This document shows, piece by piece, positions 9,985 to 12,003 of a stretch of DNA of 64,000 bases (its first letter is position 1; every line of letters begins with the position of its first letter). Under the pieces are notes generated by a model. It had not been told where the DNA came from. It was given only the letters and a program-made list of their open reading frames with translations, and made no database searches. Origin of the DNA: Gaiellales bacterium (lineage in GTDB: Bacteria; Actinomycetota; Thermoleophilia; Gaiellales; JAICJC01); contig DASWRM010000033.1 of NCBI GenBank assembly GCA_036403155.1, forward strand, positions 1-64,000, written 5' to 3'. The position numbers and the translations under genes are program-made.

Positions 9985-10045
9985 GAGCGCCGTGCCGTGG
10001 GGCAGCCTCCTGGCATCCGTGACGCTGGACTACGCTCCCTCGCCG

Positions 10046-11497
10046 ATGGCCGCGACGAGCCTCACCGTCACGCCGCTTCGCGGGGGAGCCGTTGAGCTAC
10101 GCGCACTGGCGGGGGACGAGCCGGTGCTGCTGGTCTTCGCGCACCGGGACTGCCCCACCTCCGCGCTCGCCCTTCGTCACCTGGCGGATGCCCGGGCCGG
10201 CGCCGTGCGGGTGGTGGTCGTCGCCGAGGAGCCGCCCGAGGAGGCCGCCCGGCTCGCCCTCCGTGCCGGCCTTCGCGCGCACGTTCTGTCCCAGGAGCCG
10301 CCCTACCAGGCGTCACGCGAGCTCGGCGTCGAAGCTGTGCCGACCGGGATCCTGCTCGACCGCGACGGCGAGCGCGAGCGGCTCGTCGGCTGGGACCGCG
10401 GTGCCTACGCGCGCGTGCTCGGCGTCGACCTCCCCGACCTCGGCGCCGCACGCAAGCCGGGCTGCGGGTCGCGTGCCGTCGAGCCTCCGCAGGAGGGTGG
10501 GCTGGATGAGGTGGAGGACATGTACGAGCGCGGCTTCACCGACGGTTTACCGGTCGTACCGCCAACGCCCGAACGGGTCGATTCGATGCTCGCCGGCCGC
10601 GATCCCGATCTGTCGCTCGGCGCCGTGCCGCCCGCGCACGGGGAGGCGACGCTCCGGCGGGTCGCGGCCTGTGCCGTTCTGGCGGGCTGCCGGCCGGAGT
10701 ACTTCCCCGTCGTCGCGGCAGCGGTGGAGGCGGCGCTCGAGCCCTCGTTCAACGCCCACGGAATCGCCGTCACCACACAGCCGGCCGGCGTCATGGTGAT
10801 CGTCAACGGCCCGGCGCGCGACCGGATCGGGCTCAACTCCGGCATGGGAGCGCTCGGCCCCGGCAGCCGGGCGAACATGACCATCGGCCGGGCGCTGCGA
10901 CTCGTGCTCATGCTGACCGGCGGCGCGCTCCCGGGCCGGCTCGACCGCTCGACGCTCGGGAATCCGGCCAAGCTGGGACTCTGCGTCGCCGAGGCGGAGG
11001 AGCGCAGTCCGTGGGAGCCGCTGCACGTGGAGCGAGGGCTCTCGGCCGGCGTCTCGGCGGTGACGGTGCTCGCCGCCGATGCGCCCCTCTCCGTGTCGGA
11101 TCACCGGTCGCGAACGCCCGAGCAGCTCGCCGACGTGCTGGCGCAGGCGGCGGCCGCGACGTGGAGCCCCTACTGGTGGCCGATGGACGACGACTCGCTG
11201 ATCGTCATCTGCCCGGAGCATGCTGACCTGTTCGCCGGGCACGGCTGGTCGAAGGCGCGCGTGCGCGAGGCGATCTTCGACGCCGCTCAGCGACCGGCCG
11301 CCCAGCTGCGGCGGGGGGAGACGACCGAGCTGGTGCTGACCAGCGCCGATGCTGCGCCCATCCGCAAGTGGACCGGCCCCGACCGGATCCTGCTCATGGT
11401 CGCGGGCGGCGAGGCCGGGCGCTACTCCGCGGTGTTCGGGCCGTGCGACGGTATGGGGACGAGAGCGATCACACGGGAGGTGCGATGGACTACGTGA
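10046..11497 (+). CDS. Thioredoxin-fold domain fused to a UGSC-associated domain
   Basis: The 483-residue protein has two parts. Residues 1-140 look like a thioredoxin/peroxiredoxin fold with a single redox cysteine in 'HRDCPTS' (C36; CxxS, no resolving Cys) and a cis-Pro-like 'EAVPTGILLD'. Residues from about 155 start 'MYERGFTDGLPVVPPT' and form a separate conserved domain that I know only as a neighbour of UGSC-type proteins. TACGCT lies nine bases before the chosen ATG; a GTG at 9992 is an alternative start. The 3' end overlaps the UGSC selenoprotein gene by 13 bases, so the two are probably coupled and may work together. Reaction unknown. Confidence 0.65.
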   Translation: MAATSLTVTPLRGGAVELRALAGDEPVLLVFAHRDCPTSALALRHLADARAGAVRVVVVAEEPPEEAARLALRAGLRAHVLSQEPPYQASRELGVEAVPTGILLDRDGERERLVGWDRGAYARVLGVDLPDLGAARKPGCGSRAVEPPQEGGLDEVEDMYERGFTDGLPVVPPTPERVDSMLAGRDPDLSLGAVPPAHGEATLRRVAACAVLAGCRPEYFPVVAAAVEAALEPSFNAHGIAVTTQPAGVMVIVNGPARDRIGLNSGMGALGPGSRANMTIGRALRLVLMLTGGALPGRLDRSTLGNPAKLGLCVAEAEERSPWEPLHVERGLSAGVSAVTVLAADAPLSVSDHRSRTPEQLADVLAQAAAATWSPYWWPMDDDSLIVICPEHADLFAGHGWSKARVREAIFDAAQRPAAQLRRGETTELVLTSADAAPIRKWTGPDRILLMVAGGEAGRYSAVFGPCDGMGTRAITREVRWTT

Positions 11498-12003
11498 GCC
11501 CGTTCGACGAGCGCGTCCGCGACTCCGAACCGCTGGCCGGCCGGGCCGCGTCGCTCGAGGGCCGGACGGTCGTCCTGCTCGACATCACGAAGGCGCGCGG
11601 GGACGAGTTCCTCGACCGGGTCGAGCGTCTGCTCCACCGCCGCGGTGCACGGACGTTCCGGATCGCGAAGGAGTCGTTCTCGCGGCCTGCGTCGCCGGAG
11701 GTGATCGAGCAGATCGCGATCCATGGCGACCTGACCGTCGAGGGCCTCGCCGACTGAGGATCGTGTGTGTCGTGCAGTGTGCACGACGCGGTGCGGCTGG
11801 AGCGGCGCGGGATCGCGACCGCTGTCGTCGGCACGGAACCGTTCGTCGACGAGGCGATCGAGCAGGCCCGCGTGCTGGGGATGCCGGACATGCGAATCGT
11901 GACGGTGCCGCACCCTGTGCAGATCCTGACCACCGCGCAGGTGCACGACCTCGCGGACATGGCGATCGACGAGGTCGAACGCCGCCTCACGGCTCCGGCG
12001 TAG
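11485..12003 (+). CDS. UGSC-family selenoprotein with in-frame UGA (Sec91)
   Basis: The frame runs 172 codons from an ATG with GGGAGG four bases upstream. It is interrupted only by a TGA at 11755-11757, which falls in the motif U-G-S-C (followed by VSCSVHD). The sequence continues seamlessly in the same frame for 81 more codons with protein-like composition. Proteins with U or C at this place are known as UGSC-family (seleno)proteins. A hairpin placed as bacterial SECIS elements require follows the TGA. I read the TGA as selenocysteine. The family's reaction is not known to me. If UGA were a stop, the product would be a 90-residue fragment lacking the motif. The selABCD genes are not in the window. 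Confidence 0.8.
11766..11790 (+). other. Putative bacterial SECIS hairpin
   Basis: GTCGTGC (11769-11775) pairs perfectly with GCACGAC (11781-11787) around a five-base loop AGTGT. Three more pairs, two of them G-U wobbles, extend the stem outward. The apical loop begins 18 nt after the UGA, inside the 16-37 nt window of known bacterial SECIS elements. It has a G in its first two positions, as SelB recognition usually requires. Confidence 0.7.

What the first reader, a model, noticed from the sequence alone, without database searches (positions are those of the whole stretch)
11485..12003. In-frame UGA decoded as selenocysteine in a UGSC gene, with a SECIS-like hairpin
The frame is open for 90 codons, reaches a TGA at 11755-11757, and continues open for 81 more codons, with U-G-S-C formed exactly at the TGA. 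UGSC-family proteins carry Sec or Cys at this place (established knowledge). A 7-bp perfect stem (11769-11775 with 11781-11787) with a five-base AGTGT loop starts 18 nt after the UGA, matching the known bacterial SECIS layout. A conventional gene finder would split this into a 90-residue fragment and a 78-residue fragment starting at GTG 11767.
Basis: partly seen in the sequence, partly recalled or inferred. Interest (0 to 1): 0.85.

Follow-up and report, generated by a model that had tools for sequence, protein, structure and literature searches.

The report
Selenocysteine UGSC protein with redoxin-linked partner
A gene that looks broken by a stop codon really encodes a selenium-containing protein of the known but uncharacterised UGSC family, and it travels with an unnamed partner gene, which suggests the two form a thioredoxin-powered enzyme resembling glycine/proline reductase.

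Summary
Window 11485-12003 (+) is one gene whose in-frame UGA (11755-11757) is read as selenocysteine. The 172-residue read-through product matches Pfam UGSC (1.8e-46) and passes the NCBIfam UGSC cut-off. The genome carries tRNA-Sec, selA, selB and selD. In relatives, 47 of 53 genes have TGA at this codon and 6 have a Cys codon. The hairpin meets every published bacterial SECIS constraint; its loop is conserved and its stem shows compensatory changes in relatives.

The family is known and this is a new member. Three points go beyond it. (1) The overlapping upstream gene (9992-11497) is a redoxin fused to a ~330-residue domain "X" with no Pfam or NCBIfam model; X is present in all 27 UGSC-bearing genomes of 397, usually adjacent, sometimes fused. 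(2) UGSC is predicted to be flavodoxin/Rossmann-like, not thioredoxin-like as published; its Sec segment aligns with GrdB/PrdB of glycine/proline reductase. (3) Free X-UGSC pairs sit beside trxB/trxA and CoA-catabolic or carboxylate-uptake genes.

Proposed function (inferred, about 45%): a thioredoxin-driven, GrdB-like selenol reductase acting on a substrate bound with X.

The parts
11485..12003 (+). UGSC-family selenoprotein gene, 172 residues with UGA read as Sec91; motif U-G-S-C-V-S-C (UxxCxxC)
   Evidence: PF24696 E 1.8e-46; NF041046 142.8 bits vs cut-off 125
11755..11757 (+). in-frame UGA, codon 91, selenocysteine
   Evidence: TGA in 47 and TGC/TGT in 6 of 53 homologous sites
11769..11787 (+). 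SECIS core: 7-bp stem GUCGUGC/GCACGAC with apical loop AGUGU; full predicted hairpin about 11758-11798
   Evidence: fold; conservation and compensatory changes; constraints of PMC13188914
11475..11480 (+). probable ribosome-binding site GGGAGG, 4 nt before ATG 11485
   Evidence: read directly; inference
9992..11497 (+). partner gene: N-terminal redoxin/AhpC-TSA-like domain (residues about 21-126, DCPTS motif) fused to domain X; true start may be downstream of GTG 9992
   Evidence: Pfam AhpC-TSA 2.3e-4 and Redoxin 2.7e-4, both below gathering score; relatives reach 6.9e-9; orthologues beside UGSC
10499..11485 (+). domain X (about 330 aa), unnamed constant partner of UGSC
   Evidence: no Pfam or NCBIfam model; co-occurrence 27/27 UGSC genomes of 397 and 15/15 of 129
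11485..11497 (+). 13-nt overlap of partner gene end and UGSC start, suggesting translational coupling
   Evidence: coordinates; inference

Best explanation
The UGA at 11755-11757 is decoded as selenocysteine by SelB and Sec-tRNA using the hairpin directly downstream, giving a 172-residue UGSC selenoprotein (this part about 0.98 certain). It works with its overlapping upstream partner, a redoxin-X fusion. The UGSC protein is a compact flavodoxin/Rossmann-like domain with Sec at the end of strand 3 and the N-terminus of the next helix, as in the Sec segment of GrdB/PrdB. The proposed cycle is: the Sec91 selenolate attacks a substrate held with X; Cys94 (or Cys97) resolves the selenoether to a Se-S bond; the redoxin domain, or TrxA/TrxB in relatives, reduces it. 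Shown here: gene, SECIS, sel machinery, family membership, constant partner. Predicted: fold, remote GrdB/PrdB similarity. Inferred: the reaction cycle; the substrate is unknown, probably a small carboxylate or acyl-CoA-pathway intermediate in the free X-UGSC clades. The confidence given is for the functional model as a whole.
For: Sec decoding; SECIS constraints in PMC13188914. Partner: same 15 of 129 genomes and 27 of 27 UGSC genomes of 397 (Fisher 5e-41), X within 310 bp in 39 of 43 matches; X beside UGSC in plasmids of Archaea, Proteobacteria and Actinomycetota; single-chain fusions. Fold: pLDDT 87.8, pTM 0.83, beta-alpha order; flavodoxins and a cobalamin-binding protein among best Foldseek matches, no thioredoxins. 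GrdB/PrdB: hhalign E 6.1e-7, probability 92%, U in register, versus redoxin P 0.003 (probability 10%) and reversed controls 0.07-0.6; three GrdB sequences outscore all 292 unrelated proteins. GrdB motif is UxxCxxC and glycine reduction uses Trx/TrxR (PMC13188914, PMC3091704). trxB-trxA-X-UGSC, X-UGSC-trxB and trxB near X-UGSC; redoxin fused to X here.
Against: The GrdB/PrdB match is remote, rests on about 60 columns, and its E-value is for a single pairwise comparison. X shows no detectable similarity to GrdE (P 0.17), so the pyruvoyl partner of glycine reductase has no counterpart here. Some X-UGSC fusions have Met in place of Sec/Cys and Ser in place of the resolving Cys, so the scaffold can do something without a selenol. 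The redoxin-X type, as in the window, lacks conserved catabolic neighbours. No expression or protein data.
Confidence: 0.45

Rival explanations
1. UGSC is a genuine selenoprotein but a general thiol/disulfide or peroxide oxidoreductase of thioredoxin type, as the literature assumes; the redoxin-X protein is simply its electron donor.
For: PMC2398784 calls it 'likely Trx-like fold' with UxxC redox motif; redoxin domain in the partner; trxA/trxB neighbours. GrdB itself is reported to have peroxidase activity (reference title in PMC3091704).
Against: Predicted fold is flavodoxin/Rossmann-like, with no thioredoxin among the best PDB matches; profile match to redoxin is at background; obligatory large X partner and CoA-catabolic context in free X-UGSC clades argue for a substrate-specific enzyme.
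Confidence: 0.3
2. UGSC is a selenoprotein whose X partner carries the chemistry (for example a lyase or isomerase) and whose Sec only regulates or protects it in a redox-dependent way.
For: X is the larger, well conserved component; Met-containing fusions keep X without Sec or Cys; weak Foldseek resemblance of X to class I fumarase (best E 6e-3).
Against: X model is poor (pLDDT 62), so the fumarase match is unreliable; most UGSC proteins strictly keep Sec or Cys plus the resolving Cys.
Confidence: 0.2
3. The TGA is a true stop, a sequencing error or a pseudogene lesion.
For: A standard gene finder stops there.
Against: TGA shared by 47 of 53 sites across many families with covarying SECIS; Cys homologues lose the loop signature; sel genes present.
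Confidence: 0.01

Closest known systems
UGSC family (seleno)protein, Pfam PF24696 / NCBIfam NF041046 (metagenomic description in PMC2398784)
   Same: Full-length profile match above curated cut-off; Sec or Cys at the motif; bacterial SECIS; UGSC motif intact
   Different: Nothing in the protein itself; the redoxin-X fusion partner upstream is not part of the family description found here
GrdB / PrdB, selenoprotein subunits of glycine and D-proline reductase (PF07355 covers them up to the Sec)
   Same: Strand-U-x-x-C-x-x-(C)-helix-strand segment in register, followed by an HPxx motif; UxxCxxC; thioredoxin-system genes beside some members
   Different: UGSC is shorter, has its own N-terminal beta-alpha-beta-alpha unit, is not hit by PF07355, and its partner X is not detectably GrdE/PrdA
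UGSC/'Unknown_1' fusion selenoprotein reported in PMC2398784 (supplement not readable here)
   Same: A conserved domain fused to UGSC, as in the X-UGSC fusions found here; possibly the same domain
   Different: Could not compare sequences; [quoted passage not shown]
Thioredoxin-like / AhpC-TSA redoxin family
   Same: N-terminal domain of the partner (9992-11497)
   Different: UGSC itself does not match it in profile or predicted fold

Membership tests
UGSC (seleno)protein family | Profile match over the whole protein above curated cut-off | tested here: met
   PF24696 158.8 bits vs 25; NF041046 142.8 vs 125
UGSC (seleno)protein family | Sec or Cys in the UxxC (UGSC) motif | tested here: met
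   U91-G-S-C94; 47 TGA and 6 Cys among 53 sites
Bacterial selenoprotein gene | bSECIS: loop 3-9 nt, stem 4-16 bp, G in first two loop positions, 16-37 nt from UGA to loop, MFE <= -7.5 kcal/mol | tested here: met
   loop AGUGU, 7 bp, G at loop position 2, 18 nt, -20.8 kcal/mol
Bacterial selenoprotein gene | SelA, SelB, SelD and tRNA-Sec in the same genome | tested here: met
Bacterial selenoprotein gene | Selenocysteine present in the protein | not testable with these tools
   needs mass spectrometry or 75Se labelling
GrdB/PrdB (PF07355) | Match to the Pfam GRDB profile | tested here: not met
   no PF07355 hit for P0001 even at E 10; none elsewhere in genome G000
GrdB/PrdB (PF07355) | Sec segment homologous to GrdB/PrdB | tested here: inconclusive
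   hhalign E 6.1e-7, probability 92%, Sec in register, controls clean, but short and pairwise
GrdB/PrdB (PF07355) | Partner homologous to GrdE/PrdA (pyruvoyl-forming subunit) | tested here: not met
   X vs GrdE P 0.17, near reversed control
Thioredoxin fold | thioredoxin topology with the CxxC-type motif at the N-terminus of the domain's active-site helix | tested here: not met
   predicted model has five beta strands alternating with helices and U after strand 3; no thioredoxins among best Foldseek matches; prediction, not a solved structure

The most novel reading that the evidence does not exclude
UGSC plus X is a widespread, unrecognised class of two-component reductases in bacteria and haloarchaea: a minimal GrdB/PrdB-like selenol (or thiol) domain with a new substrate-binding partner, driven by thioredoxin or, as in this window, by a redoxin domain fused to the partner. 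It would bring glycine/proline-reductase-type Sec chemistry outside anaerobic amino-acid fermentation.
Probability: 0.4. Interest if true: 0.72.

Novelty: new member of a known kind. Interest (0 to 1): 0.5.

Why it matters
UGSC is one of the commonest environmental selenoprotein families (255 sequences in the Global Ocean Sampling set, PMC2398784) and still has no known function; a 2026 review says the biological functions of nearly all such families remain largely uncharacterised (PMC13188914). A constant partner gene, a fold that differs from the published guess, a remote link to glycine/proline reductase and a thioredoxin/CoA-catabolic context make the function testable: co-express UGSC with X, reduce with thioredoxin, and screen the pathway intermediates. 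For annotation, the gene is broken in two by standard tools, as already happened in a Paracoccus plasmid record, and domain X deserves its own family model.

Tried and rejected
Sequence search of UGSC and X against PDB: nothing significant. Rfam on the window: no match, and no tRNA in the window. X against Pfam and NCBIfam: only the redoxin part of the longer rows. X structure model: poor (pLDDT 62); Foldseek best hits class I fumarases at E 6e-3, not believed, because the Cys residues of X are not all conserved in divergent members. X as GrdE homologue: rejected. UGSC as thioredoxin-like: rejected. A possible extra Sec in a partner gene (L110, 'stops_inside 1 TGA'): it is the partner's own stop codon. 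Per-gene folding energy against synonymous recoding was mixed (z from -3.0 to +1.4), so energy alone was not used as evidence; conservation and covariation were. UGSC in phages: no match.

Full report
OBSERVATION. The reading frame is exactly as described: ATG 11485, 90 codons, TGA 11755-11757, 81 sense codons, TAG 12001-12003; read through with TGA as Sec it gives 172 residues with the motif LADUGSCVSCSVHD. A mechanical ORF list splits it into a piece ending at the TGA and a 78-aa GTG ORF at 11767. The hairpin 11769-11775/11781-11787 with loop AGUGU exists. The window itself has no Rfam hit and no tRNA.

IT IS A UGSC SELENOPROTEIN. The read-through product matches Pfam PF24696 over residues 3-169 at E 1.8e-46 and NCBIfam NF041046 at 142.8 bits against a cut-off of 125. 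The window lies in G000, a 3.2-Mb, 98%-complete assembly in 79 contigs; the named relatives are MAGs labelled Solirubrobacterales or Actinomycetes. This assembly holds tRNA-Sec (63.8 bits, over cut-off; ARAGORN calls it with anticodon TCA), selA, selB and selD (Cys-type by eye). Of 129 genomes of the order, 15 carry UGSC in 19 copies, 17 with a TGA inside and 2 without. Over all loci collected up to then, 47 of 53 sites are TGA and 6 are TGC/TGT, with no other codon.

SECIS. The published bacterial model (PMC13188914) asks for a 3-9 nt apical loop, 4-16 bp upper stem, a G in the first two loop positions (usually N1-G-[G/U]-N-N2 with N1 pairing N2), 16-37 nt from UGA to loop and MFE of -7.5 or lower. 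Here: AGUGU (N1 = A, N2 = U), 7 bp, 18 nt and -20.8 kcal/mol. Across 47 Sec homologues the loop is AGUNU or GGUCU in 43, and stem pairs change together: U-A to C-G in the UATC clade, C-G to G-C in several sequences, U-A to G-C in L035. In the tool's count, 97.1% of cells pair (shuffles 91.1%), 10 cells have changes on both sides (shuffles 1.6, 0/500 as high), and slid registers pair at most 56%. The Ser codon that forms the loop is AGT in 42 of 42 Ser cases versus 3 of 45 background Ser codons (P 1.3e-21). Cys homologues lack the signature; two of them (L023, L024) keep a stem-like sequence with loop AGCCU, which looks like a decaying SECIS after a Sec-to-Cys change. Folding energy compared with synonymous recoding is not uniformly low, so it is not used as an argument.

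A CONSTANT PARTNER. The upstream gene 9992-11497 overlaps the UGSC start by 13 nt. Its N-terminus is redoxin/AhpC-TSA-like (sub-threshold; relatives reach 6.9e-9). The remaining ~330 residues (domain X) have no Pfam or NCBIfam model. X is found in exactly the same 15 of 129 order genomes as UGSC (a 16th hit in G127 covers only the redoxin part). In a sample of 397 genomes of the phylum, all 27 genomes with UGSC over the cut-off have X, and one further genome, G310, has X alone (Fisher 5e-41). X lies within 310 bp of UGSC in 39 of 43 matches. All 13 plasmid records with a UGSC match come from organisms and records that also appear among the X matches or list an X-sized hypothetical neighbour, in haloarchaea, Proteobacteria and Actinomycetota. 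The two also occur as one chain: G313 with Sec, Variovorax boronicumulans with Cys, and G264, Sporomusa and Vibrio with Met at the Sec position. The 2008 metagenome study reported a UGSC/'Unknown_1' fusion (PMC2398784); I could not read the supplement to see whether Unknown_1 is X, so the association may be partly known.

FOLD AND REMOTE RELATIVES. [quoted passage not shown] An AlphaFold2 model from four sequences (pLDDT 87.8, pTM 0.83) has strands 28-33, 56-61, 83-89, 111-117 and 138-141 alternating with helices, with Sec91 directly after strand 3. The best PDB matches include flavodoxins and a cobalamin-binding protein, with no thioredoxin in the listed top 50 (TM-scores are modest, 0.34-0.53). 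Profile-profile comparison of 53 UGSC sequences with 13 GrdB/PrdB-type sequences gives E 6.1e-7, probability 92%, with the Sec in register and UGSC 'PHPVQ' opposite 'THPFG'. The same query scores P 0.003 (probability 10%) with the redoxin domain and 0.065-0.61 with reversed profiles. Against single sequences, three GrdB proteins (41.0-42.8) exceed all 292 unrelated neighbour proteins (maximum 34.7, a D-2-hydroxyacid dehydrogenase), while redoxins stay at or below 21.8; several other PrdB-like single sequences fall within the background. PF07355 stops just before the Sec, which explains why Pfam does not show the link. GrdB carries UxxCxxC (PMC13188914), exactly as UGSCVSC does. X itself is not GrdE-like (P 0.17).

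CONTEXT. In redoxin-X loci the neighbours vary. In free X-UGSC loci, CoA-transferase III, acyl-CoA dehydrogenase, AMP-binding ligase, enoyl-CoA hydratase and SDR genes recur beside the pair; none of these hits among 92 scanned neighbours lay in a redoxin-X locus (hits assigned to loci partly by sequence cluster). Annotated plasmids show trxB-trxA-X-UGSC (Arthrobacter), X-UGSC-trxB (Roseovarius), trxB near X-UGSC (Variovorax SRS16), CoA transferase, CoA ester lyase, TRAP/TTT carboxylate transporters and RraA. Glycine reductase is likewise fed by NADPH through thioredoxin reductase and thioredoxin (PMC3091704).

MECHANISM. Shown: gene, SECIS, sel machinery, family, constant partner. Predicted: fold and GrdB/PrdB kinship of the Sec segment. 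Inferred: the Sec91 selenolate attacks a substrate bound with X; Cys94 or Cys97 resolves the selenoether; the redoxin domain fused to X restores the selenol. In D-proline reductase the published proposal is the same sequence of steps for PrdB (PMC3091704). Against it: X is not GrdE-like, the profile match is short, and Met-bearing fusions exist. It works like GrdB in this proposal; it is not filed as a GrdB family member.

NOVELTY. The gene is a new member of a known selenoprotein family. The constant partner X, the non-thioredoxin fold and the GrdB-like reading are the parts that would interest a specialist.

Noticed in passing
G000 contigs C74 (loci L011, L012) and C61 (L010, L013): Two divergent selA-selB pairs (about 72% DNA identity), each cut by a contig end: either a second operon or assembly contamination (assembly reports 3.1%).
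   Followed up: partly
L023 and L024 (G098, G097): Cys-type UGSC genes that keep a hairpin-like sequence downstream of the Cys codon but with loop AGCCU instead of AGUNU: looks like a relic SECIS after Sec-to-Cys conversion.
   Followed up: partly
L133 (G264), L168 (Sporomusa termitida plasmid), L169 (Vibrio europaeus plasmid): Single-chain UGSC-X proteins with Met in place of Sec/Cys and Ser in place of the resolving Cys (GDMGTS); the two plasmid copies lie close to aconitase X and DUF126 genes. A non-redox branch of the family?
   Followed up: partly
L134 (G310:C272): Tandem X-X proteins in a genome without a detectable UGSC protein.
   Followed up: no
L163, Paracoccus ferrooxidans plasmid CP038202.1: UGSC annotated as two hypothetical proteins split at the TGA, with selB about 4.4 kb away on the same plasmid.
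   Followed up: no
L036-L041 (G036, G083, G085, G086): A UGSC subfamily with UATCxSRS instead of UGSCxSCS, in several genomes as extra copies beside its own X gene; up to five UGSC copies in one genome (G487).
   Followed up: partly
L070-L079: Short PrdB-like selenoproteins, most with U-x-x-C at the Sec site, occur in genomes of the same order, several of which also carry UGSC (G016, G036, G083, G085, G086).
   Followed up: no
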